DNA from: Hymenochaete sp. R1
Lineage: Eukaryota > Basidiomycota > Agaricomycetes > Hymenochaetales > Hymenochaetaceae
Reading direction: 5' to 3'
Length of the DNA stretch: 38,552 bases
Assembly: GCA_019400425.1 (NCBI GenBank)
Contig: JAFREE010000194.1
Coordinates: 1 to 38,552, forward strand
Shown here: one piece after another, positions 11,773-37,860 of the stretch
How positions within the stretch are numbered: the first letter of the stretch is position 1
Layout of the letters: each line of letters opens with the position of its first letter
The notes under the pieces: model-generated
Told to the model about the DNA's origin: nothing
The model's database searches: none
Seen by the model: the letters and a program-made list of their open reading frames with translations, nothing else
Made by a program: the position numbers and the translations under genes

Positions 11773-13703
11773 TCAAAGAAAATATTTTGTATACGTGGAT
11801 GAGCCCCAAGGGTTTGTGGTGCGATGTACTGCAATATCGAGCGGTAAGTTTGTATTAATGGGAAGTAGATCCTTGTGACGGGCTCTTCTTAGAGGTCGAA
11901 GAGGTTTTAAAGAATCCTTGATGCTGTGCTGATTATAGGAGTCGTCCCACGGAATATGCATGCCGTCATTATCATCTGTGTCAATGTTTTTTTTTTAAAA
12001 ATTAGGAAGAAAAGTAACAGAACGACGTACCGGAAAAGAGCACGTCAGTCATTCCAATGGCATCGTCATAACCCTGAAAAAATACTTGATCATCCAGCAT
12101 ATCCTCATTTGCATATTCGGGAAGCTGCCAGTGGTCGAAAAAGTTGGCAGTAAAGAGTTGGGAATCAACGATCCCGTTACTGGGAGGTTTCAAGCCTTTC
12201 GAGCGCCATGCGCTACTATGTTCCTTAGTCGCGTCCATGCCCCTTTGTTTCTTTGATGGTACATGTTCTTCTTCGATCCACATCTGCCTTTTCCTTGGTG
12301 ATGTTACCTGCATTACGAAATCATTAAGATGGGCTTGTTGCTCTTTCGTAGATACGGCCGACTTGAGTCCCGTATCAAGCATCAATGAGAGCATGCTTTG
12401 CACTTCGTGCATTTTTAAGCGCGAGGATGCGGTTGAATCACAACAATGTTGGAATAAATGCTGAAGTCGGATGTAGTCTCCTTCGTGACCCTTGGTATTC
12501 AGGTACGAAGTGAGCACTGGCATCAACCCTTGGCTAATCGCCATGTACGTTTGAGGTTCGTTCTTGCCTTGGTATGGTCGACGTCGAGCAACGAGTTCCT
12601 ACGGGACGTCAGAGATGATGTAGGGAAGCAGCAATCAAACGTACGTATAAAGTCATGCCAAATGCCCAGACGTCAGATTCCTTCGAGTGCCTCGCATCGG
12701 GAATGCGGGGGTCAACCAGCTCCGGTGCATAATAACCTATCGTTCCTTTCGTCGTATCCGTAATCCTTCCTATCGAGTTGCTCGCAACGAGCATGCGAGT
12801 GCTACCAAAGTCGCTGATCATAGCTCTCCCTTTCGGCGAGATCATAACATTATCCTATTGTAAAAACTCGTCGTAGTATGGAAGGTATGTCATAAAGAGT
12901 ACCTACGGATTTGATATCCGAATGGATGGCACCATTATCGTGAAGGTATCCAAGCCCATTTGCAATATCCGACACCTCAATATCCCTTTCACCATTAGAT
13001 TTCAAAAGCAGAAGCAGTTTCACTCACCAATAACAAGACAGAGGACCAGCCGAGATCAGAGTGCGCTTGAATATACGACCAGGCGTTCCCGTTATGCATC
13101 CATTCTGAGATAAGCAGAGGAAATCCTGTCTCGCTACAGAATGCAAACCCTAATAATGGCAAGAGATTCGAGTGCTGGAATTTGGACCACATGTATATTT
13201 CTTGTTCAAAAAGCTTCAAGCATAATGAAAAGTGTCAGTCATGTTTCTTCTAGGTACGCAAGACACTAACTCACCCTCGAGCAGTCCGTCGAGTTTACAT
13301 GAAATCGCAGACGCTTGATAGCAACATCGATCTCACCACGTAGCCCGTATCGACAACGTCCCTTGAATACTTCAGAGTACGCCCCAAAACCCTTCGCCTC
13401 GTCCTCCTTTACAACGATCTTGCCAAAAAGGTCCAGATGCGGTAGTTGTGAAAGAATGCTTGTGTCTGACACTGGGAGAGGCTTCCGTGTTGTCAATGGT
13501 CTCGATTGACATGGCCATGCAGAAATCTCATCCCAGTCGGTCTGTTGAGATATAGGTAAGGATTCAGACCAGTCAGTTGATCCCAGCGGATTGGTGTCTG
13601 AAGACGACGGGCGGAAGTCAGACGAAGGCTGTCCTGAAAGCAGGGACGACCAGCTTCCACTCGCGAAAGAGTTCTGTCTTGGATCAACGGCCATCCGACT
13701 CAT
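11773..13703 (-). CDS. Protein kinase, Agaricomycete TKL-like family (kinase 1)
   Basis: Exons 13703-13275, 13213-13028, 12975-12907, 12854-12645, 12598-12031 and 11975-11773 give about 554 residues. A Ser/Pro-rich N-terminus (about 90 residues) precedes the kinase domain. The glycine loop is GFGAYSEVFKGRC, the lysine is in VAIKRLRFH, the helix-C glutamate is in FEQEIYMWSK, the catalytic loop is HSDIKSDN (Ser replaces Arg of HRD) and the magnesium loop is SDFGST. TIGYYAPELVD and SDVWAFGMTLY follow. Subdomain XI is weak (CCDSTASSRLKMHEV). The tail of about 200 residues has a likely nuclear signal (SPRKRQMW, PSKKQRG) and an acidic stretch; no known domain is seen there, in contrast with its paralog at 16292-18518. 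Central exons of 62, 23 and 70 codons are identical in length to that paralog. Substrates are unknown. Confidence 0.85.
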
Positions 13704-14099
13704 TGCTTAGACGTTCGGTCAGCCTGATTGTTTCCAGTATGACTACGGCGTGGCGAAAGAGTTGAAAACGAAGTGAGAGTGGCCTCGTATGCGTGTATCG
13801 CAGGATGACCGAGTGCTCAAGGGTTGATTCATTGCCATTGCTGTCCACACGTTTTGATGGATACCCACCCAAGAGAGTACTAGACGCCCGCGGCGTCTAT
13901 TCCAAACCTTTTGTATACAGACGCTTTTGTCGACATCGCATTAAACAATAAAAAAAAAAGGGCAAAAAAAGCAGTGACAAGCAGGTGGTGTAAGGAGCAG
14001 AAGAACCTGCAAAACCAGACTTGACCCGCGTCAAAGTCTGAGTGTGGTGCGCGATTCGGCAAAAGTACGCCCATTGGCCCTTCTTCCTCTCTAACCACC
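13704..14099. promoter_or_regulatory. Divergent promoter between kinase 1 (-) and DPH4 (+)
   Basis: 396 bases separate the two start codons, so both promoters must lie here or overlap. An A-run (13949-13958) is flanked by a small A/T-rich patch, and there is a pyrimidine stretch just before the DPH4 ATG. No clear TATA box is placed for either gene. Confidence 0.5.
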
Positions 14100-14588
14100 A
14101 TGTCCGATGAGCAACGCACGCAGACTCACTATCAGGTCCTTCGAATAACGACATCTGCATCCATGGCAGAGGTCAAGGACGCTTACCATCGCGTTCTTCT
14201 AGCGTCTCACCCCGACAAACAAATTTCAAGCACAGGGAACGCTAACGTCAATGTCGAATTCGACATCGCACTTCTCAAGGCTGCTTATCTGACGCTTTCT
14301 GACCCCGTCCTACGTGCTGAATACGATATTTCGATGAGAAGAAGGAGAGAGGAAGGGACAAGGCTGGTCACCCGACCTCGGCCTGCTCAAGTCATCTCAC
14401 TAGACGACTTCACAAAATGCTCTGCGAATAACGCTGTTCAATTTTGGTCTCATGTCTGTCGATGTGGAGGCTCTTATGTTACTACTGAGGACGACATTGA
14501 ATGCGAACGCCATATGATTGCATGCGAGAGATGCTCTGAAGTCATCTATGTTGGTTACGAAGTGCTGGACGAGGATAATGATCAATAG
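14100..14588 (+). CDS. DPH4: DPH4/DNAJC24-type J-protein, left copy
   Basis: Single exon, 162 residues. The N-terminal J domain (about residues 8-80) has YQVLRITTSASMAEVKDAYH and the HPD motif in LLASHPDKQ, followed by AYLTLSDPVLRAEYD. The C-terminal half (about 98-150) has CRCGGSY and, about 25 residues later, CERC, the four cysteines of the DPH-type (CSL) zinc finger; the usual linker motif VISLDDF precedes it. In yeast and animals DPH4/Jjj3 binds iron or zinc and supports the first step of diphthamide synthesis on elongation factor 2 in the cytosol. The gene is divergent from kinase 1 and about 330 bases upstream of the small membrane-protein gene on the same strand. A second full copy lies at 37861-38349, and a decayed third at ~18994-19410. 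All key residues are present. Confidence 0.92.
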   Translation: MSDEQRTQTHYQVLRITTSASMAEVKDAYHRVLLASHPDKQISSTGNANVNVEFDIALLKAAYLTLSDPVLRAEYDISMRRRREEGTRLVTRPRPAQVISLDDFTKCSANNAVQFWSHVCRCGGSYVTTEDDIECERHMIACERCSEVIYVGYEVLDEDNDQ

Positions 14589-14915
14589 CTTGCCTCAAGG
14601 TAAGTAAAGCAGCGTATTGACCGTTCGGATTTTTAATGATATTTGAATCTTGATAGCATACGATTTAAGCTCTTTGTGCCAGCTTTCTGGAAGCTGTATT
14701 GGTGTCTGATGCTGCACGATTACTGACGGTACATACCTCTCATTCCCTTAACCTTTTCTCGATCATTCAAAGGTCATCTTCAGGGATAAAGTTACTAGAT
14801 ATCTTCAACCTCAAAGTCAGATTGCAGTTTGGACCAAGTGTTCTATTCGGTTGATCTCTTTTGGTCGTGCCACCCGTCCTTATTCTCTCTCTCTCCTTCC
14901 GCCACTGCTATCATC
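14589..14915. other. Intergenic spacer between DPH4 and the membrane-protein gene (left copy)
   Basis: 327 bases holding the DPH4 3' end and the next promoter, with a CT-rich leader (14880-14900) before the ATG. It is strongly conserved with 37539-37860 read in reverse, so the non-coding DNA was copied with the genes and has had little time to diverge. Confidence 0.6.
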
Positions 14916-15765
14916 ATGTCTTTCAATTTAAGACACAATCACCCCTCTTCTACCAGCAGCAATGCTGACTGCAGCGGGTGCAAGGTGCAGGCCTTCCATC
15001 AACGTGTGCTATCCGAGGACAAGAAACGCACAGGCATTTATAGCATGTCTGTAGTCATGCTGCACGAGGCGTATCGTCGAAGCTTCGTCTATGATCGTCG
15101 TCGTAGGATCTTCAATGCTTGGGTTCTCGTCTTTTACTTCTTGGCGCTCTTCATCGTTGGAGTAGTGCTCACGAACAATGTGTTCCTGTGCAGGCTTGCT
15201 CGGAGGTATTGGAGAAAAACGAGGCGTGAGGTTAGGTGGTACAGTCGTATCTTGGCGGAAGGATGGAATGGGAAGGAAACCTGGTCTTTGGAGTGGCGCG
15301 TGTTGTATAATGTGCTAGAAGGAAGCACGGTCATGATCTTCGTTGGTGATTTATGCGTATACTCTGTGAGCCACTCCTTCAATTTAGTCTGTTGTTTATA
15401 TGCTGAAGTTGGACTAGCTTGTGCTCTCCCTCAAGCACTCTGAGACTGCCTATCAAACGAAACTGCGTGGTTCAGGCTTGGATGCATTCGATCTGTGCCT
15501 CATTGCCATCGATAGCCCACCGAACATTATTTATTATATCCATCGAAAGCTTCCTCTCAAAAGTATGTTCCATATTTTTCAATTTTCATTCTCGCTGATT
15601 GACGATGTTGATTTTCACCGTCCAGCCGACTCGTCTGGGTCTGATAGCACCATTATTCGCGTTTTCGATAAATTATTGCGAGTGATCCCTGCTGAGCAAC
15701 AAAAGGCTCGTTTGGCGTACCCCGTTTATATCGCGATGCCTGAGCTTGAAGAAGAGCTTGCTTAG
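14916..15765 (+). CDS. Small membrane protein of unknown function, left copy
   Basis: Exons 14916-15365, 15418-15562 and 15626-15765 give about 244 residues. The second intron (63 bases) is open in frame, so a retained-intron form 21 residues longer is possible. I prefer splicing because GTATGT and CAG borders are present in both copies. The first 55 residues are polar, with a Cys pair (DCSGCK) and His-rich start (LRHNHPSS). A strong helix follows (WVLVFYFLALFIVGVVL), then a basic stretch (RRYWRKTRREVRWYSR). A second, weaker hydrophobic segment spans the first intron junction (VMIFVGDLCVYSLVLSL). The rest (HSETAYQTKLRG.. to PELEEELA) is soluble-looking. The family is not recognised. The near-identical twin is at 36689-37538 with the same exon lengths (450, 145 and 140). 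Confidence 0.75.
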
Positions 15766-16291: not shown

Positions 16292-18518
16292 TTACTCGCT
16301 CTCTACAAACTTCTGCCGCTCGTATTTCTGCAGTTTATCCGCTTTAGGAAGTTCCTGGATGAGATGTCGAACGATATTGTTGTCCAGTCCAAATCCATTC
16401 GTTCCCGATACCAAGCTCGCATGTTGTTGTCGGCGAAGGAGCCTTGCAGAACGCACGACGCTCGCCCACGCACCAGTCGGGGTATTCGCCTCGAAAGAGA
16501 CACCAGGCCTATCCTGAGCGGTGATTTGAAAACGCGGCCTATCACCACCATCGAGGATCTTGCAATAGTAGGCGGCTTCAGAATATGCGTCTTGGGTACT
16601 AAGATACTGCTGAGTGATTTCGTACCCCACAGGGAAAATATAGCGCTCGGTGTGAAAGAGATGGTGAAGGCGAATTTGGCCGAGGTTGAGGATGGTTATC
16701 TTGCCTATGTTCAGAGGGAGCATTGGCTTTCCAGTGAAACAGTCTCGATGAATTACTGGGATCAGAAGTGATTTGGGTATGATCGTTTGAGACCGTAAAC
16801 GGTTAGGATTTGCTTGACGTAGACGGACAGAGGGACAAGGACTTGATTGGTGCGGTTGGCGTACAGTTGAGTCTACGGGAGTAGGAAGGACCGCTACAGC
16901 AGCTGCTGTATCGGGAAGAGGACACGAGAAGGGAGGAGATATTGGGTTGGGCGGATTGGTCGTGGACAGAGAAGGTGAAAAGGTCTGAGAACGAGAAAGG
17001 TTGGGTACGAATCTGGACATGCTGACTTCACGATTCTGTGATATCGAAGTGATTTCCCGCTCGGCCTCGTAGTTCTCGGACTGTACGCTGAGGTGGACAT
17101 CTGGCTCTTCGAAACGTCTTTTTTCCGTGTCTTCAGATGGCTCGGAACTGCTGTCTGCGTCCGAAGCACTGTTCTCTGGACAAGGCGTCTCCACTGATGG
17201 TGAGTTTCCGTCGTCTTCTGTAGATAGTGAAGGGAAAGAAAGAGCGTTTACCTCCACGCTGAGAAGTAGCGATGAAAGTGACGCCTTCAAAGTCGTGATC
17301 TTTGGCCGGAAAACTGGATCGCGGTTCCAGCACCGCCCACAGATAGCTCTTATCTGAGTGTACTTAAACTCCGAAGCGCAATATTCAATACCCGGTGGAA
17401 ATTCGGGTAACGATCCTTTGTTAATTGCCATATACGTCTGGACTTCATTTTTGTCATGGTATGGTCTCCTCCTTGTAATGAGTTCCTATTTCTTGGGGTG
17501 AGCTGTAGAGAGAAAGAGAATATGCCCATAGACACGCACATAAACCGTCATAGAAAATGCCCAGACGTCTGTCTGTTTTGAATACTGTGCGTGGGGATTC
17601 GATTCGTCTATGAGCTCTGGGGCCAAGTAATTGATAGTTCCCTTCAGTCCCGATGACATCTGCGCCAGAGATCTGCTTGCAAGAAGCGTCCGAGAGCTTC
17701 CAAAATCGCAGAGTAATGCCCTTCCTTCCGGTGATATGACGATATTATCCTTTATACAGGGACACTCATGACCGTCGCTACCAATCATAGCGGCAAGTTC
17801 CACTAACCGATTTGATATCTGAGTGTACAACGTTCATCTCGTGCAAGTACTCCAGCCCATCCGCAACATCGAGGACCTCGCTCATAGTCAGGCTTTGTAT
17901 CTTGCGCATGCAACAATACACGCACCAGACGTAGAGTACTAGCTAGGTTCATGTCGGGATTTGATTTAAGATAATTCCATGCGGTGCCGTTGTTCATCCA
18001 CTCCGAAATTATCAAGGGAAACCCAGTGTCCCCGCAGAAAGCGTATCCTAACAGAGGAAGGATATGAGGATGCTTGAGTTTTGACCACACATAAATCTCG
18101 CTCTCGAATAACTTTGAAAAACTAGGCGTGAGGGTGCAATCCACAAGAAAGAAGTAAAACGTCTCACTTTATTGCAGTCAATGGATCTGACATGGAAACG
18201 GAGGCGCTTAACGGCGACCGTGACCTCGCCCCGTATCCCAAGGGAGCATCTTCCTTTGAAGACCTCAGAGAACGCTCCATGACCGATCGCATCGTGCGAC
18301 CTTGCTGTCAGCTGCCCGCACAGGTCAAAGCTCTGGAGGTGAACCCATATACTGTTATCGTCCATTAACAACTCCTTCCGTATCGTTAACGGCCTTTCGG
18401 TCGATCCAACCCTCATGAGCTGTTCATCTTGATTAGGGCCTTGTATTTGAGATGAGATATCTCCTCTATTTTTCGCTGTGCCCATTTGACAGTTACCGGG
18501 TCTCAAAGGGTTGAGCAT
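16292..18518 (-). CDS. Protein kinase fused to a C-terminal FYRN-FYRC module (kinase 2)
   Basis: Exons 18518-18168, 18111-17926, 17876-17808, 17749-17540 and 17485-16292 give about 669 residues. The kinase domain (about 60-345) has GHGAFSEVFKGRC, VAVKRLRFH, FESEIYVWSKL, HSDIKSDN (Ser for Arg of HRD), CDFGSSR, NYLAPELID, TDVWAFSMTVY and, in subdomain XI, CWNRDPVFRPKI. A Ser/Thr/Pro-rich linker of about 180 residues follows. Residues about 532-660 form FYRN-FYRC: LGQIRLHHLFHTERYIFPVG, then YYCKILDGGDRPRFQI, TPTGAWASVV, SGTNGFGLDNNIV and LIQELPKADK. This pairing is known from MLL/KMT2, some JmjC demethylases and TBRG1, where it is a chromatin-associated fold. The end of the kinase domain and the whole FYR module are in one uninterrupted exon, so the fusion is not an artefact of joining exons. 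The start is set at 18518; the frame stays open to an in-frame ATG at 18590. Substrate and partners are unknown. Confidence 0.88.
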
Positions 18519-22585: not shown

Positions 22586-25006
22586 CGCATAATGCGTGTT
22601 CGTCCCGGTCCCGGTACACGATCCCGTGGATCCTCAACCCCAAGTTCCAAGTCCCAGTTTCTCGGACGGGGGACAGAGCTCAGGCTGTCGCCTGATGTCA
22701 TGCGCGAACCTTTTCCCTTTCCCTCGATGCGCGGTGAGAATATTAATACATGTATACTAGTATGAATAGAATATCAAAGCGCGCGCATACTAGTAGCAAG
22801 TCACGAGCACAGACTCGGAGGACGAAGCCGAAGCCCACGAGTGTGACCAGACGAAGAGCCGGAAGACGGACTCGGACTCGGACTCGGAAGTGGACTTTGG
22901 GTTGGGGTCGTTGATTCGCTGTTGCAGTGTTGGTACATAGTCATAGTCATGGTACTAGTGGCTAGTTCCATCCATCCAGATCCAGATCCAGTTACGATGG
23001 TACCGCACCGTGAGACTTTCAGCTTATGGAACCTGATTCGAGGGCTCTAGATTAGGTTCAGACTCGGAACACGTCGGGAGACACGGAGGTAGACTCGGAG
23101 GAGATTTCTTTTTGTTGGTGTTTTTGTTCTTGCTGTTGAGTAATTTACTAGTGGATGAATGAGGCTCGGAGACTTTAAGCTACTCTGGTACTGTACTGCA
23201 CCGAGTCTGGGTCTGAGTATAAGTATTGCGTATTGCCTACGGCCGGCTCATCGGGAGTCGGGAGTCGGGTCGAGGGTAGCGGGTCGTAGGGCGGCGGGGG
23301 AGAAAGAGAATAAGGTTGGCAGAGAGAGTTTATCACTAGTATTATGATTATTGTTATTTGTTATTATACTGCGATTGGGTAGTTTCCGAGTCCGAAGAGC
23401 GTCGAATCGGAGGAGACGGAGACGGAGACGGGAGAATCCTCATAAAAACGCGTAACCCGGGCCAGTCCTAGTCTCATTCTCGGTGCGGTGCCAACGCCAG
23501 TGGTCGGGCCGTACCAAAAGCAAGCAAGCAAGAAAGAAAGAAAGAAAAAAACAAAAGCAGAAAAGGTGTGGGTATCACGGCGCCGAGCCCGTTAGGTTAC
23601 GTTAGGAGAGCGTCCCGTCCGTCGGCTTACTGTACTAGTAGTACATGTACTACTGGACTACTTGATGCGGTCCGGACGATTGGTGGGTTTGATGCTTTCG
23701 TAATGCCTATCAGTATCAATGCTGCTGGGCTACTGTTGCAACGACGTTAATGTAAGTGCAGGGTTTTATGCTCGGAAAGCGCCTGGTACCGGGCTGGGCC
23801 ACCGATGTAGTGTACATGTACATGTGATGGGCGCTGAGATGAGTTGAGAGAGGGAGGTATAGCTCTGCGTACTTGTTCGTACCGTGACGCCGCTGTTATA
23901 GTTAGATCATTGCTCATACGCACGCGAGCGTCTGTTACTACTAATGATGGATCGAGATGTTTCGTGAAGCCGCAAGTTGCTGACTGGATTGTGGATTGGG
24001 ATAGGAGTGGGGACGATGAGGGATGGGAATGAGTTGCTATGCGACTCGCAGCAGACCGTTCGTGAACTGGCACTGGTACTGTACTGTCAGACATCGAGTG
24101 ACTCATCAAGCTTGCACTCCACTCCACGAACGAAACCTGTCGAATGAACGAGTAAGATCGAGTTGAGGTGAAGTGACTCGCAGAAGACGAAACAAGAAGA
24201 GGCAGAATGAAGGCGATGCGATGCGGGACGAAACGCGAGAGGGCGAGAAAGCGAGAGCGAGAAAGTGTTCTGTTTTTGGAGCAAGATCGGCCGGCAGGCC
24301 GGGGAGGTTGTGGACTATATTTGGAGAGGGCCGGGTTGCTACAGCCGGGGAGAAAGGGAGGTGGGCCGGGCGCGGCCGGACAGTACCAAGTGACATCTTT
24401 TTTGACTGTGAGAAAAAAAAGGAAAGAAAGATGGATGGGATGGGTGGGATGGGCCAAAATGGCATGGCATGGTATGGCTTCTGCGCTGCGCTGGCCTCTT
24501 GGTGGTCTCTGGTCGTCGGAGTTTGGGTCAGACTCGGACGCGGATCTCTGTCTCTGTATGCGTATGTACTCCCGTTGTTTTACATGTCTTCCGACTTGCT
24601 GCTTCCGTTTTCTTTCTTTCTTTTTTCCGTGAAAATTCTTGTCGTAAGTAGTGTCGTGTGTGTCATGAAGTTCTGTTGTGAAATCGATTAATAAATATTA
24701 ATAAGAAAAGAAGAGAAGAGTGTATGTGTATGTTTGTAGTTGTATAGGCCACGGGTGGATCGGCTGTATCCGAGCCGGACGCGCGAGACTTGTTGCCTCC
24801 TCCATCCACAGACAGACACTCACTCACCCATCGCTCTCTCCCGTTCTCACTCTCTCATCCATCTCCCCTCCTCCATCCCTCCCTCCCTCCCACTCCGTCC
24901 CCGCTGCACCCCCCTCCCCTCGCCGCCGTGTGCGGCCACCAGCGCTCGACGCTCTATCCGTCCCCCTCAGCTTTCCAACAAACTCCCTCTCGGCTCTCGC
25001 TCCCAT

Positions 25007-28000
25007 ATGGCCGATCGTCCACTACCTCAGTTCCCTCCCGGTTACAACTTTATGGCAATGCAGGCCCAGCAGCAGCAGCAGCCGCAGCAACAGCACCCCA
25101 ACAACTTCGCCATCCAGCAGGGAATGGCCCCCGCAGGACAGCATGTCCCAGGCGTGAACAGTCCAGAGCACCAGCGGTTGTGGCAACAAATGCAGGAGCA
25201 GCACCGTGCGCGCGGTCAGGATGGCATGGGTAACCCTCAGATGAATATGCAGGTATGTGTGCGTGTGTGTTCTGGCTCCCTTGTTTCCACTTGCACCCTC
25301 TCCCTTCTCCCACGCACATGTGCCATCGAGAGCATCACATCGACGACGACGGCGACGGCAGCGGCGGCGAAGGGGAGTGTGACCCCAGTCGCCTCGCCGC
25401 CGCCCCTGATGAGTAGTCTCCCGTCACCGACCAATATCCGTTGGTGTTTCTTTCCCGATAAGGAAAACCACGTGATGGTCTGTCACAGGCCATGTCACGC
25501 TTCTCACGCCTCCAACGACGACGACCACTCCTCTCTTCTTCGTCTCTCTCTTCTCTTCTCCCTTTGCCTTCCTCCCTTTGCGCTCTTTCCCCTTCCTCAC
25601 CCATCCCGCTTTGCGCATTTTCTCATCTCCCACGGCCCTCGAGCTCTCTCTGGGCTTAGTTGACGCCCCAATTTGCATGTAACTAACCTGCGTTCATCTC
25701 GTCTCGCCCAGATGCCTGACTTCATGCGCAACCAGATCCCGCAACAGGGACAACCACAACCACAACCCAACCAGCAACAATCCCCTCCCCATCTCCAACA
25801 GTCCCAGCAGTTCCCGAACCTTGGCTCGACGAGCCATATGAATGGCATGCAATCCAACCAGGCTACACTGGCTGCTTTGCGACAGCAGCAACAGCATCAA
25901 CAGCAGCAGCAGCATCATCAACAGCAACAACAACTGCCGCAAGGGATGCAAGGTGGCACGTTTAACAATGTACAGTTGACCCCGCAGATGATGCAAGTGC
26001 TACAGGCCAGGAATGGAGGTGGTCCTCAGATGATGCAGATGAATCGACAACTTGGCCTCCTTAATCGCGCTCAAAAGCAGCAACCGCAAAACGGCCCGCA
26101 AATTTTCGGGCAACAGCAGATGTTCACTCCGGGTCAACAGGGAGCACTTGCTCAAGTTCCGCTTCAGAATGGCATGTTTCCGCCCAAACCGGAGGATAAC
26201 CGACCATCGATGCCATCGCATGGGACTCCCCAGCAGCAGCCACAGCAACCTCCCCAGCAGCCCCCGCATCAACTGCCCCTGACTGGCGAGCACTCGTTAG
26301 AAAACCTCGTCCACAACTTCATGCGGACAAAGGAAGGGCGGGAGCTGACGATGGACGAGCTTCGGATGAAGATCGCACACTTAAAGCGAGCTGTCGATGC
26401 GGATAAAGTTCAAGTGCAACAGTTGAAGGCGAATGGGATGTCTGAAGTGCAGCTGCATCCTCACACTCAGCGCATCATGCAGCGCGAGTTCCTCTTTCAG
26501 AAAGTTGTGCAAGAGGTGGTGAACAGAGGCGCGATACGGAATCAGCAAGCAGGGCCTAGCACGAATGGAGGGATGCCGCAGGGAAATATGTGGGTCGAGT
26601 CAAACCCATACTTGCCTTACTAAGCTCACCTGGTTTTTCTTTCTTTCTTTCTTTCTTAGGAACGGAATGGGCTTTCAAGGTGGTCATAACCAACAAGCAC
26701 CCCAGCAGACGCCAGGTAACCAGCCGATGCAAGGAACGCCCAATTGGCCGCAGCAGACGAACGCGAGCGGCGTCAATCAGATGAATGGCAACGGATTGAT
26801 CCCGAACCAGCAAATGCTGGCCATGCAGCAGAACAACCAGATGCCCTCGCAACAGAACCAAGGCATGCAGTCGCCCTTTCACCCTAACTTGGTGCAGTCC
26901 CAGCAGACGACGCCAGTTCAGAGGACTGGTCCCACGCCACTCCAGCAACAGCAGCTCATGGCTTTTATGCAGCAGCAGCAACAGCAGCAGCAGCAACAGC
27001 AGCAGCAGCAGAATAATCAGGCATCACCTCGTCCTCCCGCAAACAACAACTTAACAGGACTTCAGAACATGGGTCCGCAAGTGCCATCACTAAATGGCGT
27101 ACCTCAGCAGCAGGGTCAGCCTTCGCAACTTCAACGTTCTTCGGTGACGATGCCGCCACTCCCGCGCGACCGATTTTCTGAGATGCTGAAAGAATGTTGG
27201 TCTCGAGGGAAAGTGAATTTCAATGGATCGGACTTGATGGTCGGTCAGAAGCAGATCGATTTGTATCAACTGCATACGGAAGTCTTGCATTTTGGTGGTG
27301 TGGCTAACGTGAGTATCATCATGCTTCCCCTTCGTTTTATTTCAATTGAAAGAAATAAAATTTTAGGTGAAACGACATAACCTCTGGAATGTGATCACGT
27401 CGAAGCTGGGTTTTCATAACGACGCTGGAGGTTCGCCTGAATCTACTGCGGAGCGGTTCCGGTTTGTATACGGAAACTATCTCGAAGCTTTCGAGACGCA
27501 GTATATGATGGCAATGATGAAGCAGTCCATGAATCCCGTGATGCAGGATCAGCAAGGACAAAATCAACCACCGACGACGGTCCCGAACCAGATGAATAAC
27601 GTGCCTCAACCGCAGCAACCGCAACAAGTCCGGCAGCCCAATCACCCCAGCCAACTTAGTCCTCAGTTCATGATGAGGCTTGCGACAATGTCAGCGGAGC
27701 AGTTGAAAGCGGCCAATGTCAACGAGAGTATCATCAATTTTGTCGAATCGAGGCGAGAGCATTTGCTTCGAGAAGCGCAAAAGAATCAAATAATGTTGCA
27801 ACAGCAGCAGCAACAGCAGCAATCGCAAAATGGCCAAGGATCGCAGCAGCATGGTATGCCGCAGCACCCACCTCATCCTGGTATGCAACCCCAGCAAGAG
27901 GTCTCGATACCCGTTCCTGGACAACAACCGTATTCGCTCCAGCAGCAACAGCAACAAAGGCTTTCGCAGCCTCCTCAGATCCCTTCTCAAGGCTCACGTC

Positions 28001-30091
28001 CGGTTCCTAATCAAGGCCCGGCACCAGTCAATCTCCCTCAGCAGGCCACGGCTCCGGGCATGGGTCAGAGCATCCAGAATAACCCGGCGCTTATACAATA
28101 TTTGCAGAGTGTGCAGAAGCCGACGCAAGATACTGTGAAGGACTCTACCATGGAGATTGCCCGTCTTCGAGAGGAGTTCCGTAATAGAAGTACGTGTTTT
28201 GCTTTTTGTTCCGTGTGTCTTGGTCACTGATCCTATTGCATTAGATCCAGGGGAGACGTATAAGCAGTTATCGGATATGGAGAAGGTTACTTTCCGGACT
28301 CGCTTCGAGACTATCTGCAAGAGTCTGTTGGATATCGATAAATATCTTCCGATGTTTTTAGCTGCGACGAAAGACCAGAGGTTTACCGCTGCGATCTGTC
28401 AAATGGTGAGATTCTCTGAAAAATTAATTCTCGATTGGCATGATGCTTACACGCATATTTCATAGTTGGAACTTGTGCAGAAGCAACGCCAGTGCTTATC
28501 TTCGCCAAACCCGGGATTTATCATCGACATGCAGACGCTGGAGAAGCTACACCAATTATCGGTCGAGGCGCGACAGAAGGTCATGATAGTCCTTCATCAG
28601 TTGCAGATCTTGAACCAGAAGGAGAAGACGGAGTCGCAACGTCACATGGAGGCAGCACGGTTGGCGCAGCAGCAGCAACAGCAGCAGCAGCAGCAGCAAC
28701 AACAACACCCTCCTCAACCTCCGCATCTTCCTCAACAACCTTTCGACCATTTGCAATCGCAATCCGTTCCTCCTTCCGCCGGTCTGGCTACCTCCCCGGC
28801 GTACACTGCGCCTTCACCCTCCGGGCATACGGGGCTTCAGCGTCCTCCCACCGTCCAACCCCAACCGCCAATGAATCAACAAAACCTTCGTCCTCCTTCA
28901 CAGATAATTAGAACGCCACAGGTTCCTCCGGCCCGTCCTCCGTCCGTATCTCAGACGAAGAAGGGTCAGTTTGGGATGTCACCCAGTGCTACGGTCGAGT
29001 CAGCGTCTTCACCTCACCCTTCGACTCCTTTGACCGCGACCGCGCCTACGCCTAGTCAGGTGCAAGCTTCGCCTTCGACGCCAAAGTCTCCTAAGACGAA
29101 GGCGCCTGCGAAGTCTAAGGCGAAGAGGAAGCTGTCGAAGGTTGGTGGACAGCCGCCAGCGAGTACTAGCGCTACTCAGGCGCCCACACCTTCCGCGACA
29201 GCTGAGACACCGATATCGCAGCCGCCTGCACCTTCACCCGCAGCTCAGACCGCGCCTTCTCCTGCCGCCAGCTCTCTCAAAAGACAGAGGGAAGAGGAAG
29301 AACCGACTGCTTCGACGAGTACCGATGATCATAGCCAGGCTCAGGCTAGCACTTCAGCGGCTGGTGCTGAGAAGGAGGAAACCCCGTCGAAGAAATTGAA
29401 GACGGTCTGGGACGACTCACGTGACAACGCGCCGACGAGAGCTCAGATTGAGGCGGAGAATATCAAGACGCCTGCCCAGGCAGCGCAGTTCTATAACGAC
29501 ATGACGCAAGTTTTGGAGTTGAGCACGAACTCGCAGTTACCGCAGGACTTGCAGGAAACTTTGGCGCAGCTTGCGAAGGTTGTTGGACCTGGGTTGGATA
29601 TCCCTGACTCGGTGCTCAATGGATCGATGGACATGGGCCTTGGTGCTGGTGTTGCTGGTCCTTCGTCGCCAAAGGCTGATCAAGGGGACGACTCGTTCTT
29701 TAGCTTCTTGGACTTTACAGCATTTGACAAACCCGAGACACCGGACCTCGTCCCCGCATCGTCAACGAACCCGAGCCCAGAGTCATTGCCGGGCTCGGAC
29801 GCAGAACATGGCGCACCGCCCGGTTCAGCATCGGCGACGACTTCAGCTTTGCCTCTCTCCGGAAGCGATAGCTCAAAGAACGCGAGTAGTGGGAACAGGA
29901 CGTCTGGTGTGAATGGGGTCGAATCGGAACCGAAGGTGGACATCTACGAGAGCGGACCGGATCCTTTGAGGCTGGGCATCTGGGCTGAGATCGACGGTGG
30001 CGAGTCTGCGTACTACAATTCGACAGATATGTGGAAGTGGGACTCTGTGCCTCCGTCGGCGGGTGAGAATGCTTGGGCGATTTCGACGTAG
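25007..30091 (+). CDS. SWI1/ARID1-type subunit of the SWI/SNF chromatin remodeller
   Basis: Exons 25007-25252, 25712-26589, 26660-27308, 27367-28189, 28245-28405 and 28466-30091 keep the frame and give about 1460 residues. The N-terminal 540 residues are Gln/Met/Asn/Pro-rich with several CAG-coded Gln tracts. The ARID domain lies at about 545-638 across the third intron: PRDRFSEMLKECWSRG, LMVGQKQIDLYQLH, VLHFGGVANVKRHNLWNVI and the invariant-like Tyr/Leu pair in FVYGNYLEAFE. After another Gln-rich part come a helical segment (YKQLSDMEKVTFRTRF..), basic nuclear signals (KSKAKRKLSK; KKLKTVWDD) and an acidic/Ser-rich end. Fungal Swi1/Sol1 and animal ARID1 proteins share this plan and direct SWI/SNF to DNA. 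The start ATG follows a pyrimidine-rich leader. Intron 1 is 459 bases, far longer than the others, and open in frame for 137 codons. Fragments of this gene occur at 7646-9160, 11176-11529 and 33262-34156. Confidence 0.88.
26969..27011. repeat. CAG/CAA tract (poly-Gln) upstream of ARID
   Basis: A mixed CAG/CAA run coding for about 14 glutamines in exon 3 of the SWI1-like gene. Confidence 0.85.
28666..28705. repeat. CAG/CAA tract (poly-Gln) in exon 6
   Basis: Codes for about 13 glutamines. The SWI1 relic at 33262-34156 ends inside the matching tract, and the fusion gene at 7646-9160 loses similarity just before it. Confidence 0.85.
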
Positions 30092-31593: not shown

Positions 31594-32660
31594 ATGTCGT
31601 ACGACGCCCGTTCAAGGGGCATCATCCAGGATATCAAGGAGCCCTCCCAGAATCTGATAGACGAGCTGTATACCGCGCTTCTGGATTATAGAGCGGGCGT
31701 TCGTGGGTCGGAGGCGTTTAGTCTTACGATGCTCGCTGCTGTGAGGAGGTCTGCGCAGGCGAGGGTGATGGGGAGGGTGAAGGAGATTGTGAGGAGCGAG
31801 AGGGAGGGGCGGGTGAGTTTTTTTGAGTTTTTTTGATGATGATGGGCGCTCACGCTAACGCGGACCGTGGATTTCGGAAGGCCGCCGAGCAGGTAGTCAT
31901 CTGCGTAGGCTCCATATGGATGCTCCAGCATATCGAGCGATACCACTACAACGACGCCGTCGGGAAGTCCATCTCCGGGAGCGCGCTGAACGGGCCCAAG
32001 TTCTCGTCGCACACGAATTACACAAAGGGCGTGGAGGCGCTCGAGGGGATGCTTGGTGGGGCGCTTGAGGACTGGATGGGTCGGTTCCGCGTGACGGAAG
32101 GGAGGTATACGCAGTATCTTGAGGGGTCGGGTGTGGGTGTTAGTGTGATTGCTGGTGCTGATGCTAGACAGAGTTCGGCTTGGGTCGACGAGGGTGTTGC
32201 GAAGCGGGGTTTTCAGGACTTGTTTCTTGGTAGTACGGATAAGACGACTGACTCGGACTCGGACGAGAGGATCAGGCGAGATATAGAGCGCTTGCTTGTG
32301 TTGCATTTGGGTCTTCCGGCTGACGATGCGCATCTCAGCGTATCTTTCGCGCCGGGTCTCTGGATGAAGGGATCTCTGAGTAGGGCGGTGGACGGGATCA
32401 TGGCCTCGACGACGGGCTTCAGGAAATATAGATCCCGCCTCGGATATTTCAAGACCAAGTTTCGGGGGGAGCCTCTTTGTTGGGATTTGAAGATGAACGT
32501 ATATGTGGATGGCTCGGGGGCGAGTGCTGCTGGTGCTACCGGGAGTGGAAGTGGCCGTGGATCGAGTAGGAAACATCGCCGGGGTAACGGTACAGCGAGA
32601 GAGGAGAGAGCGGACCAGGAGGGGGAATCGATCTCGAAGGTTCCGCGCGTTGGGCATTAG
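31594..32660 (+). CDS. Unknown protein A, paralog of 34945-35985
   Basis: Exons 31594-31812 and 31881-32660 give about 332 residues. The start is fixed by the paralog (MSYDARSRGIIQDIKEPSQ here, MPYDAESEAIFNDIKEPSQ there), and the single intron sits at the same place in both. Shared blocks are SIWMLQHIE.., GSALNGPKFS, LEDWMGRFRVTEG, SSAWVDEGVAKRGFQD, LLVLHLGLPADDAH, SFAPGLWMK, LSRAVDGIM and TKFRGEPLCWDL. The C-terminal 55 residues are Gly/Ser-rich and basic (SSRKHRRGNG, ISKVPRVGH), suggesting a nuclear protein. The protein looks soluble and mostly helical, with no transmembrane segment or signal peptide. I do not recognise the family. The conserved Trp/Asp/Gly blocks suggest a folded, selected domain. 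Confidence 0.8.
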
Positions 32661-33261: not shown

Positions 33262-34156
33262 AGCAGCATAGTCGACCAAATCAGCTCAACCCTCAGCTTA
33301 CGATGAGGTTTTGGGACGGTGTCGGCGGAGCAGATGAAATCGACCATCATACTCAAGGACGTTATCGACATTGGTGAAGCGAAACAAGGTCTTTGTCTCA
33401 GGAAGCTCTATCTGCTGCAGAATCTGGCGCATCATCAGAGGTTTTTGCAGAGCTAGCCTTCAATATCGAATCAGAGCCCGGTACCAAGTGATTGCCCTTC
33501 GCATGTCAGGGTCCGGGCATGGGTCAGGGCCGCTCTCAGAATAATTCACCACTTATGCAAAGTCTACATAGTGTACGAAAGCCGACGCAGGATGCGGTGA
33601 AGAAATCTACCATGGAGATCGCACATGTTCTGGATACGGAAGTGCGTACTTTGCTTTTTGCGTCTTTGTGTCTTGACCACTGACATGATGGATTGTCGTG
33701 TTAAATCAAGGGAGGACGTATAGGTAAAATTTAAAGCCCAATATGGAAAAAGGTCGCCTTCAGGACTCGTCCCAAGATCATCTACGAGGGCCTGTCGGAT
33801 TTCGACAAATATCTCCCGATGGTTTTAGCTGTGATGAAAGACCAAAGGGTTACAGTACCAATCCGTCAAACGGAGAGACTCTGAAAAATCGATTCTCGAT
33901 TGACACGGAGCTCAAAGACGTCCTCCGGCTGGAACTCGTGCAGAAACAGCGTCAGTGCTTATCTTCGCCAAATCAAGATTTCAGGACCTACATGCAGACA
34001 CTAGAGAAGCTACACCAATTAACAGTCGAGGTACGATAGAGGTTCATGATAGCCCTTCATCAGTTGTAGATCTTGAACCAGAAAGGGAAGACGGAGTCGC
34101 AACGTCACATGGAGACAGCACGGTTGGCCCAGCAGCAGCAACAGTTTTCAGTGTCT
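33262..34156 (+). pseudogene. Decayed partial copy of the SWI1-like gene
   Basis: It corresponds to about 27620-28690 of the full gene, from just after ARID to the Gln tract of exon 6. Recognisable pieces are GPGMGQ.. with LMQSLHSVRKPTQDAVKKST (near 33505-33615), LELVQKQRQCLSSPNQDF (near 33930-33980), MQTLEKLHQLTVEV (33991-34032) and KTESQRHMETARLAQQQQQ (34088-34145). The first intron after ARID is still present in decayed form (33642-33710), so this is a DNA-level copy. Stops and shifts are frequent (for example a TAG at 34036). Similarity ends abruptly within the CAG tract. Confidence 0.85.
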
Positions 34157-34944: not shown

Positions 34945-35985
34945 ATGCCATACGATGCTGAATCTGAGGCCATTTTCAACGATATCAAGGAACCTTCACA
35001 AGTCGAACATCTGTACCCAGCTCTTCTGACTCAGAGAGCACTCAATATCGAGGGCGAAGCGGATGCGATCACTAAAACAGCCTCGATCGTAAGAGGCGCG
35101 CAAGCGAGAGTGATAAGACGAATAAAAGAAATAACTAAAAGCGAGAAAGAAGCCCAGGTCAGCTTTTCTCTTCAGTTCTGTACTGTTAGGCTATAACGAA
35201 TACTCATTGCATGTCAGTTTTATAAACAGGAAGTTATCATCAGTGGGTGCATCTGGATGCTCGAGCAGTTCGACGCGTCCTACTATATCACAATGGACAA
35301 GAGGTCAGCACGAGGAACCGCTTTGAACGGGCCTAGGCAATCATTGCACTTCAATTACAAGAACGGCATGAAAGCTCTGCAGGAGTTACTTGATATGATG
35401 CTGGGGGACTGGATGTCTCGTTTTCGTATTGCGGAAGGAGAGCACAAAGTGTACCACGATGGACCGCTCGCAGCTGTTGACGCCGAGCAGCCTTCGGCTT
35501 GGGTCGATGAGATCGCTGCAAAGCAGGAATTCCGCGACTCCTTCCTAGACGACATAAATGGGGTATCTGATGAAGAGATCAAACAGAAGCTGGAAAGTCT
35601 GCTTGCGTGTCATTTGGGCCTCCCGGGTAAGGACGCATATATCAGTGAATCCATCGCACCAGGTATATGGACAAAGACTCGGAGACCTCTGAGCAGGGCC
35701 GTCGACGATATCATGACCTTGACGTCGAAATTCAGGGGTTATCGGGCTCGTATTAATAATCACAAGGCAACATTCCGGGGGGAACCTTTTTTGTGGGACA
35801 TAGAGTCGAACCGTAAGGTAGTCGACCTGGAATGGGAGGATGCTGAACACGACCGTCAGGGTGGTGATGGCTCGAGTAGAGGCCCCGGATCGAGCAAGAA
35901 ACGCACACGCGACGAAGGGACTCCGACAGGGAGAACCAGCCAAGTTGGCGGGTCGAGCTCGAAGGTTTCGCGAGTTGTCCGTTAG
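34945..35985 (+). CDS. Unknown protein B, paralog of 31594-32660
   Basis: Exons 34945-35157 and 35218-35985 give about 326 residues. Compared with protein A the order of conserved blocks is the same: NDIKEPSQ, GAQARVIRRIKEI, CIWMLEQFD, GTALNGPRQS, LGDWMSRFRIAEGE, PSAWVDEIAAKQEFRD, LLACHLGLPGKDAY, SIAPGIWTK, LSRAVDDIM and ATFRGEPFLWDI. The C-terminus again is Gly/Ser-rich and basic (SSKKRTRDEG, SSKVSRVVR). Divergence is moderate, so the duplication is older than that of the DPH4 pair. It is preceded by the SWI1 relic just as protein A is preceded by the full SWI1-like gene. The family is unknown. Confidence 0.8.
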
Positions 35986-36688: not shown

Positions 36689-37538
36689 CTAAGCGAGCTC
36701 TTCCTCGAGCTCAGGCATCGCGATATAAACGGGGTACACCAGACGAGCCTTTTGTTGCTCAGCAGGGATCACTCGCAATAATTTTTCGAAAACGCGAATA
36801 ATGGTGCTATCAGACCCAGAAAAGTCGGCTGGTCGGCGAAAATCAACATCGCCAATCAGTAAGAGCGAAAATTGAAGAATATGGAACATACCCTTGAAAG
36901 GAAGCTTTCGATGGATATAATAGACAATGTCCGGTAGGCTATCGATGGCAATGAGGCACAGATCGAATGCGTCCAAGCCTGAGCCACGCAGTTTCGTTTG
37001 ATAGGCAGTCTCAGAGTGCTTGCGGGAGAGCACAAGCTAATATGAATTCAGCATATAAACGTAAAACTAAATCGAAGAAGTGGCTCACAGAGTACACGCA
37101 TAAACCACCAACGAAGATCAAAACCGTGCTCCCTTCCAGCACATTATACAACACGCGCCACTCCAAAGACCAGGTTTCCTTCCCATTCCATCCTTCAACC
37201 AAGATACGACTGTACCACCTAACCTCACGCCTCGCTTTTCTCCAATGCCTCCGAGCAAGCCTGCACAGGAACACATTGTTCGTGAGCACTACTCCGACGA
37301 TGAAGAGTGCCAGGAAGTAAAAGACGAGAACCCAAGCATTGAAGATCCTACGACGACGTTCATAGACGAAGCTTCGACGGTAGGCTTCGTGCAGCATGAC
37401 TGCAGACATGCTATAAATGCCTGTGCGTTTCTTGTCCTCGGATAGCACACGCTGATGGAAAGCCTGCACCTTGCACCCGCTGCAGTCAGCATTGCTGCTG
37501 GTAGAAGAGGGGTGATTGTGTCTTAAATTGAAAGACAT
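36689..37538 (-). CDS. Small membrane protein of unknown function, right copy
   Basis: Exons 37538-37089, 37036-36892 and 36828-36689 give about 244 residues, with the same exon lengths as the copy at 14916-15765. The start MSFNLRHNHPSSTSS, the Cys pair DCSGCK, the helix WVLVFYFLALFIVGVVL and the end PELEEELA are unchanged. Replacements are few and mostly mild (for example LPDIVYY against PPNIIYY, VFEKLL against VFDKLL). The frame and all splice borders are intact, so both copies may be expressed. Confidence 0.75.
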
Positions 37539-37860
37539 GATGATGGCAGTGACAGAAGGAGAGAGAGAAGGACGAGTGGCACAATCAAAAGAGATCAACC
37601 AAATACAACACTTGGTCGAAACTGCAATCCGACTTTGAGATTGAAGAAATCTAGTAGCTTTGTTCTTGAAAATGACTTGTAAGTGATCGAAAAAAGGTTA
37701 AGGAAATGAAAGATATGTACCGTCAGTAATCGTGCAGAATCACACACCAATACAGCTTTCAGAAAGCTAGCACAAAGAGCTTGAATCGTATTCTATCAAG
37801 ATTCAAATATCATTAAAAATCCGAACGGCCAATACGCTGCTTTACTTACCTTGAGACAAG
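37539..37860. other. Intergenic spacer between DPH4 and the membrane-protein gene (right copy)
   Basis: 322 bases, reverse-complement counterpart of 14589-14915, differing by scattered substitutions and a few small gaps. Confidence 0.6.

What the first reader, a model, noticed from the sequence alone, without database searches (positions are those of the whole stretch)
16292..18518. Protein kinase fused to a FYRN-FYRC chromatin module
A single exon (17485-16292) carries both the last kinase subdomain (CWNRDPVFRPKI) and a complete FYRN-FYRC pair (LGQIRLHHLFHTERYIFPVG .. LIQELPKADK). FYRN-FYRC is known from KMT2/MLL, JmjC proteins and TBRG1; I know of no established kinase-FYR architecture. The kinase keeps Lys, Glu and DFG but has HSD for HRD. 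This suggests a chromatin-targeted kinase, or a pseudokinase scaffold.
Basis: partly seen in the sequence, partly recalled or inferred. Interest (0 to 1): 0.8.

Follow-up and report, generated by a model that had tools for sequence, protein, structure and literature searches.

The report
Mushroom kinase with borrowed chromatin domain
In this mushroom-type fungus one gene joins a protein kinase to a copied piece of a chromatin protein, and it belongs to a large kinase family whose members carry different borrowed tails, much like some plant immune receptors, so it may be part of an unrecognised fungal self-defence system.

Summary
Minus-strand gene 18518-16292 (5 exons, 669 aa) encodes a complete kinase (Pfam 3.5e-46) joined, inside one open last exon, to FYRN (2.2e-17) and FYRC (2.8e-16). 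An ORF in another record (P0001, 92% identical, gap-free) keeps the same exon. HSD is common here: 22 of 32 family loci read in this genome have it, so this is a non-RD kinase rather than an obvious pseudokinase.

The FYR part is a diverged copy of the genome's own TBRG1-like gene (60% identical; 15 rare shared residues) and is predicted to keep the FYR fold. The kinase sits inside a clade of TPR-tailed paralogues, so FYR looks like a swapped tail.

The wider finding: of 32 paralogous kinase loci, 21 have a recognisable tail: TPR 5, Rho 4, DM9 3, Num1-type PH 2, receiver 1, casein kinase 1 1, Swi1-like 1, FYR 1, copies of other genes 3. The four Rho tails all lack the catalytic Gln.

Best explanation, inferred and not shown: a kinase-based family with integrated domains, analogous to plant kinase-fusion and NLR-ID immune receptors. 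Main rivals: INO80-targeted kinase; non-adaptive tail capture.

The parts
16292..18518 (-). Kinase-FYR fusion gene, 5 exons, 669 aa (exons 18518-18168, 18111-17926, 17876-17808, 17749-17540, 17485-16292)
   Evidence: spliced model with one terminal stop
17279..18296 (-). Protein kinase domain, aa 75-341 (with introns): GxGxFxxV, VAVK, FESE, HSDIKSDN, CDFG, LAPE, CW..RP
   Evidence: PK_Tyr_Ser-Thr 3.5e-46, Pkinase 1.1e-40; sequence
18112..18167 (-). intron 1, 56 nt GT-AG
17877..17925 (-). intron 2, 49 nt GT-AG
17750..17807 (-). intron 3, 58 nt GT-AG
17486..17539 (-). intron 4, 54 nt GT-AG
16721..17278 (-). Ser/Pro-rich linker, aa 342-527; aa 392-499 (17128-16805) resembles the stretch before FYR in the own TBRG1-like gene
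   Evidence: open only in this frame; local alignment score 104, largest of 300 shuffles 77
16547..16720 (-). FYRN
   Evidence: 2.2e-17; 1.8e-17 in whole-genome scan
16310..16540 (-). FYRC
   Evidence: 2.8e-16; 2.2e-16; model of 16292-16879 matches 2wzo, TM 0.92 by target length
12002..13502 (-). Second kinase of the same family, with a short tail (129 aa searched) for which no copy was found elsewhere in the genome

Best explanation
The gene makes one protein: an apparently active non-RD TKL/FslK-type kinase with a C-terminal FYRN-FYRC module that is a diverged copy of the fungus's own TBRG1-like (probably INO80-associated) protein (fusion and copy shown by sequence; activity inferred from residues). 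It belongs to an expanded, partly clustered kinase family whose members carry different tails, many of them copies of the cell's own signalling or structural proteins (shown by sequence). Inferred: the tail is a sensor or bait (an integrated domain). A foreign molecule, such as an effector of a virus, bacterium or mycoparasite, or a non-self allele after hyphal fusion, that binds or modifies the real TBRG1 also acts on the copy; this changes the attached kinase, which phosphorylates itself or a partner and starts a defence or cell-death response.
For: Fusion. Copy of the own gene: 59.9% identity to C284 against a median of 51.5% to 135 other FYR proteins; 15 rare residues shared with C284, against at most 8 with any of the 135. 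Tail swap: the kinase tree puts it in a clade of six (100/97) whose other five have TPR tails, sister to TPR kinase C81:7311 at 100/97 (TPR over cut-off in three; in C335b and C134 shown by 52-54% identity to a TPR tail or to each other and a weak Pfam match in C134). Tails in 21 of 32 loci, 13 of the 21 running on in the frame of the last kinase exon. Three of four unannotated tails tested match another place in the genome at 82%, 77% and 44%. The four Rho tails lack the catalytic Gln (DTSGSE, DTSGLE, DTSGHE, DISGSE) while most kinase domains keep their key residues (DFG in 30 of 32, Lys in 27 of 32). TPR and, in relatives, WD40 tails are usual C-terminal repeats of fungal NLRs (PMC12258605, passages). 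Non-RD kinases are typical of plant and animal immune receptors (PMC3630090, passages). Present constraint on the tail: FYR 2 of 159 residues differ from P0001, linker 25 of 150, Fisher p 7e-7.
Against: No functional, expression or population data. The FYR tail is nearly unchanged between window and P0001, where an arms-race sensor might be expected to vary. Eleven of 32 loci have no recognised tail. Of ten longer homologues from other species scanned, only one (P0214, vWA) has a clear extra domain besides kinase domains, and in P0213 and P0228 the kinase is near the C-terminus. Tail labels are clustered on the kinase tree (13 changes against a shuffled mean of 26.0), so free exchange of tails is limited. 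The PH tails sit on the same contig as the presumed canonical Num1, which fits passive local duplication. Eight of the 21 tails rest on inferred introns, and in two more (one Rho, CK1) only the first short piece, recognised by eye, lies in the kinase frame. A non-RD motif also occurs outside immunity (recalled).
Confidence: 0.45

Rival explanations
1. Chromatin-targeted kinase: the FYR module still docks to the INO80-type complex (or another FYR partner) and brings an active kinase to chromatin to phosphorylate its subunits or histones.
For: FYR fold predicted intact (pLDDT 88; 2wzo TM 0.92); 61 of 81 columns that are at least 95% conserved are kept; FYR constrained as strongly as the kinase tail (2 of 159 against 3 of 70 differences, p 0.17); human TBRG1 co-purifies with INO80 (PMC10954555, passages).
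Against: 20 of those 81 conserved columns are changed, against 2 in C284. Sister kinases carry tails unrelated to chromatin. No partner known.
Confidence: 0.25
2. Non-adaptive tail capture: a duplication-prone kinase family runs into copied fragments of nearby or distant genes; the tails have no selected role or only stabilise the protein.
For: The window holds two partial copies of an ARID/Swi1-like gene, one of them with stops; a 1257-aa frame with the Num1-type PH lies on the kinase contig C26; some kinases may be damaged.
Against: FYR far more conserved than the linker between window and P0001 (2 of 159 against 25 of 150); long open frames from kinase into tail.
Confidence: 0.2
3. Two neighbouring genes wrongly joined: a kinase and a separate TBRG1-like copy.
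For: No transcript evidence; the canonical FYR gene has no kinase in its FYR exon.
Against: One frame without a stop from kinase to FYR; same exon in P0001; no in-frame Met shared by both between exon residues 19 and 255; open frames from the last kinase exon into a tail are seen in 12 other loci.
Confidence: 0.05

Closest known systems
Plant kinase fusion proteins (Sr43, Lr9, Pm4, tandem kinases of Triticeae)
   Same: Apparently functional kinase fused to varied second domains; proposed model is kinase as signaller and second domain as integrated decoy (PMC10260397, passages). Tail kinds partly coincide: a vWA tail in Sanghuangporus P0214 as in Lr9; kinase plus second kinase at C11.
   Different: Unrelated kingdom; the fungal family is clustered and carries many copies of own genes; no resistance function shown.
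Fungal NLRs and their putative integrated decoys (Sordariales)
   Same: C-terminal TPR or WD40 repeats, clustering, extra domains resembling core host proteins (PMC12258605, passages and section 20).
   Different: No NACHT or NB-ARC in this protein; the kinase takes the N-terminal place.
FslK / TKL kinases expanded in Agaricomycetes
   Same: Expanded in Agaricomycetes, many in Fomitiporia, catalytic residues kept (PMC3937382, section 4). Nearest homologues here include Fomitiporia and Sanghuangporus.
   Different: That paper reports extra domains in only 16 of 241 members and suggests developmental roles, not immunity; its Table S3 was not seen, so overlap is unknown.
TBRG1 / FYR proteins
   Same: FYRN-FYRC pair, fold of 2wzo.
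   Different: Kinase at the N-terminus, no sequence after FYRC, fast divergence after duplication.

Membership tests
FYRN-FYRC (TBRG1-type) proteins | FYRN and FYRC adjacent and above curated cut-off | tested here: met
   62.9 and 59.9 bits against 24 and 21
FYRN-FYRC (TBRG1-type) proteins | FYR fold as in 2wzo | tested here: met
   AlphaFold2 model, TM 0.92 by target, rmsd 1.7
FYRN-FYRC (TBRG1-type) proteins | Association with INO80-type complex | not testable with these tools
   needs pull-down
Active eukaryotic protein kinase | Lys, alpha-C Glu, HxDxKxxN, DFG, APE | tested here: met
   sequence; HSD instead of HRD, as in 22 of 32 paralogous loci
[quoted passage not shown]
   no named FslK reference sequences in hand; nearest kin fit
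Integrated-decoy immune receptor | Extra domain is a copy of a host protein from the same genome | tested here: met
   C284; three of four other tails tested match C46, C113, C195
Integrated-decoy immune receptor | Extra domain varies between members of one receptor family | tested here: met
Integrated-decoy immune receptor | Recognition of a foreign molecule and a defence response | not testable with these tools
   needs genetics
Fungal NLR | NACHT or NB-ARC domain | tested here: not met
   only kinase, FYRN, FYRC in Pfam

The most novel reading that the evidence does not exclude
The large TKL/FslK kinase expansions of mushroom-forming fungi include a kinase-based immune or non-self receptor repertoire: an active non-RD kinase signals, and a swappable C-terminal tail (TPR or WD40 repeats, or a copy of a core protein such as Rho, Num1, a receiver, CK1, Swi1 or TBRG1, in the Rho case apparently disabled) senses attack on that protein. 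The kinase-FYR gene guards the INO80/TBRG1 node.
Probability: 0.35. Interest if true: 0.92.

Novelty: new variant of a known kind. Interest (0 to 1): 0.74.

Why it matters
[quoted passage not shown] If tails are integrated sensors, each tail names the core process under attack (Rho signalling, cell cortex, two-component signalling, chromatin remodelling), and the receptor idea becomes directly testable by deletion and by comparing strains. It would add a fungal, kinase-based case of the integrated-decoy principle to plant NLRs, Triticeae kinases and the putative decoys of Sordariales NLRs. Nine literature searches were run; in the listings, capped at 6 to 20 titles with the start of each abstract, I saw no kinase-FYR protein and no fungal kinase family with copied host domains.

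Tried and rejected
Separate-gene reading: rejected as unlikely. Pseudokinase from HSD: rejected because the motif is the commonest in the family. Homology of the linker to the TPR-kinase C81:7311 linker (aa 357-412): score 72 lies under the shuffle maximum of 94, so not claimed. Phylogenetic sister relation of the FYR copy to C284: the tree gives a very long branch and sets the pair window/P0001 apart from the other 71 rows, so origin from the own gene rests on identity and shared rare residues. Viral-contig scan for the exon: nothing. Tail of the second window kinase: no copy found. Zn-cluster-like tail at C26:20 kb (E 0.0048, which names no member; attributed by eye) and in P0206 (20.9 bits, cut-off 21): too weak to count. 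Receiver tail: PDB search gave only general receivers; Skn7-like is recalled by eye. C190 kinase hit: 25% identity, HRD type, left out of the family. Not done: RNA evidence, dN/dS (the DNA of P0001 was not available), FslK tree.

Limits of counts: the own-genome kinase search scored 66 of 268 candidates, so the family may be larger than seen; 32 loci were read; matches at C302:108971, C214 and C257 were not fetched or counted. For tails 393 ORFs of at least 42 aa at 28 loci were listed and 165 of them scanned, with three loci by three-frame reading and single ORFs again; loci L056, L057 and C26:24 kb were only looked at as ORF lists. Searches do not name the matching members; I attributed them by eye and then checked, where L040:2954-3466 (C335b) gave no Pfam match (TPR shown), L051:3255-3761 (start of a Rho tail) and L036:5548-5745 (Swi1-like) gave none, and L054:2160-2585 gave only the kinase end. 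In the PDB search of that last ORF CK1 matched its end at E 0.13; the later exon of the same tail matches YCK2 at 1.9e-18. The Swi1-like tail rests on 38% identity over 50 residues, E 1.2e-7 in a search of fetched loci and the window only. The C195 match of the C90 tail holds one TAG.

Full report
What is there. The minus-strand gene from 18518 to 16292 has five exons and four short GT-AG introns and reads as a single 669-residue protein. Pfam finds a complete kinase domain at 75-341 and FYRN plus FYRC at 528-664, all well above cut-off. The join between them lies inside one exon of 397 codons; its linker is open only in the coding frame and no shuffle of 5000 stays open. A protein from another record, P0001, matches 379 residues of this exon without a gap at 92%. 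So the fusion is unlikely to be chance or an assembly error. RNA evidence is missing.

Is the kinase alive? Lys, alpha-C Glu, HSDIKSDN, DFG and APE are present. In the table of exon matches HSD stands for HRD in 22 of 32 paralogous loci of the same genome; one reads HCD, and nine differ or fall on an exon junction that I did not resolve. Of 59 homologues from other organisms 28 have S, 15 G, 7 R, 3 another residue and 6 were not read at that place. This is a mostly non-RD kinase family rather than a single pseudokinase.

Where the FYR part comes from. The genome scan found two FYR loci: this one and a TBRG1-like gene on contig C284. The fused FYR region is 59.9% identical to C284 and has a median of 51.5% to 135 other FYR proteins (best 55.6%), while C284 itself has a median of 78.4% to them. 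It shares 15 rare residues with C284, against at most 8 with any of the 135. Similarity to C284 extends upstream of FYR, over aa 392-499 (score 104, largest of 300 shuffles 77). The tree, however, sets the window/P0001 pair on a very long branch apart from all other rows. The copy diverged: 20 of 81 highly conserved columns are changed, against 2 in C284. Yet it is held steady now: 2 of 159 residues differ from P0001, against 25 of 150 in the linker (p 7e-7) and 3 of 70 in the kinase tail. The predicted structure matches the solved TBRG1 FYR domain, 2wzo (sequence match).

How rare the combination is. Two searches with the FYR part returned 195 distinct proteins, none with a kinase in the precomputed Pfam column. 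The searches reach only proteins that share exact words and lie within length limits, and by the names given no Sanghuangporus or Fomitiporia FYR protein was listed at all, so absence in close relatives is not established.

The family. A search of the own genome with the whole protein gave 97 matches, C284 and the gene's own exons among them, with 66 of 268 candidates scored. I read 32 kinase loci of the family, this one included; 11 lie on contig C26 and 5 on C81. Tails: FYR (this gene); TPR over cut-off at C81:7311, C81:13413 and C287 and, by similarity, at C335b and C134; Rho GTPase at four places on C26 (one matches RHO1/RHOA best in the PDB); Num1-type PH at two places on C26; a response-regulator receiver at C26:55 kb; a casein kinase 1 copy at C11; DM9 repeats at three places on C312; an ARID/Swi1-like piece after C81:3962 (38% over 50 residues); and matches to C46 (82%), C113 (77% over 87 residues) and C195 (44% over 107 residues, with one TAG) for the tails at C301a, C320 and C90. 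That is 21 of 32. In 13 of the 21 the tail runs on in one open frame with the last kinase exon (FYR, four TPR, one Rho, one PH, two DM9, CK1, C301a, C320, C90); for the Rho and CK1 cases only the first short piece, recognised by eye, lies in that frame and gave no significant domain match. In the other eight the link crosses an inferred intron. Eleven loci have no recognised tail. The four Rho tails all lack the Gln of the DTAGQE motif (motif recalled).

Tail swapping. In a tree of 48 kinase domains the 32 own-genome loci form one side (support 100/99) against 16 homologues from other species, and the FYR kinase lies inside a clade of six with five TPR-tailed kinases (100/97), sister to one of them (100/97) (C134 was labelled 'other' in that run). 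The rows were built from exon matches, not from verified gene models. Rho and PH tails do not form single clades in that tree, but several forks there are unresolved, and over all labels tails are clustered (13 changes, shuffled mean 26.0).

Organism. The closest kinases are from Sanghuangporus, Coniferiporia, Fomitiporia, Phellinidium and Schizopora, with Tulasnella, Rhizoctonia and others also listed, and the best match of C284 is Schizopora, so the genome is probably of the Hymenochaetales (order recalled). Among 60 matches some carry WD40 (P0199, P0203, P0219, P0229, P0232), TPR (P0216, P0217, P0250), SH3 (P0202, P0251), vWA (P0214) or Sel1 (P0239, P0248) domains; meanings of accession numbers not printed by a call are recalled. 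Of ten longer homologues that I scanned myself only P0214 showed a clear extra domain besides kinase domains, and in P0213 and P0228 the kinase lies near the C-terminus. Tail diversity is thus not limited to this genome, but many homologues show none.

Interpretation. Copied, sometimes disabled, host proteins hung on an otherwise intact signalling module are what the integrated-decoy model describes. It was proposed for wheat kinase fusion proteins (PMC10260397, passages), and putative integrated decoys are reported for Sordariales NLRs (PMC12258605, section 20). TPR and WD40 are common C-terminal repeats of fungal NLRs (same paper, passages), and non-RD kinases are frequent among immune receptors (PMC3630090, passages). 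I therefore favour a sensor role at 0.45, against a targeted chromatin kinase at 0.25, non-adaptive capture at 0.2 and a mis-join at 0.05. The strong present conservation of the FYR tail does not decide between the first two and counts against the third.

What is known. FslK kinases are expanded in Agaricomycetes with 16 of 241 members having extra domains (PMC3937382, section 4; the table was not seen), and Laccaria has a large TKL set (PMC2838846, passages). PMC9815663 (passages) and PMC10097750 (passages) were looked at for background. In nine searches of open-licence full texts the capped listings showed no kinase-FYR protein and no fungal kinase family with copied host domains.

Noticed in passing
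window 24740-30091 (+), copies at 8986-7694 (-) and 33492-34129 (+): A Q-rich ARID/Swi1-like gene with two partial copies in the same window (pieces 59-90% and 54-79% identical, the second with stops); a fragment like its C-terminal stretch also follows kinase C81:3962.
   Followed up: partly
window 14799-15443 (+) and 37011-37697 (-): Two ORFs of unknown family in opposite orientation, 171 of 185 residues identical.
   Followed up: partly
window 31827-32660 (+) and 35197-35985 (+): Two related ORFs, 116 of 244 aligned residues identical, another local duplication; the first has no Pfam match.
   Followed up: partly
G000 C26:4.4-4.8 kb (L058, L062): A Num1-type PH in a 1257-aa open frame, presumably the canonical Num1-like gene, lies on the same contig as the kinase cluster whose two members carry PH tails.
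   Followed up: partly
window 16108-15890 (-): Just after the kinase-FYR stop, an ORF piece (HHLSTEARQRISLVL) resembles by eye the Swi1-like stretch; not reported at the thresholds.
   Followed up: partly
P0100, P0158: TBRG1-like records filed under plants (Anthurium, Salix) may be fungal contamination; the first carries PF14612 (Iec3 domain, recalled).
   Followed up: no
window 14025-14588 (+): DnaJ plus CSL zinc finger, a Dph4-like gene (name recalled), beside the kinases.
   Followed up: no
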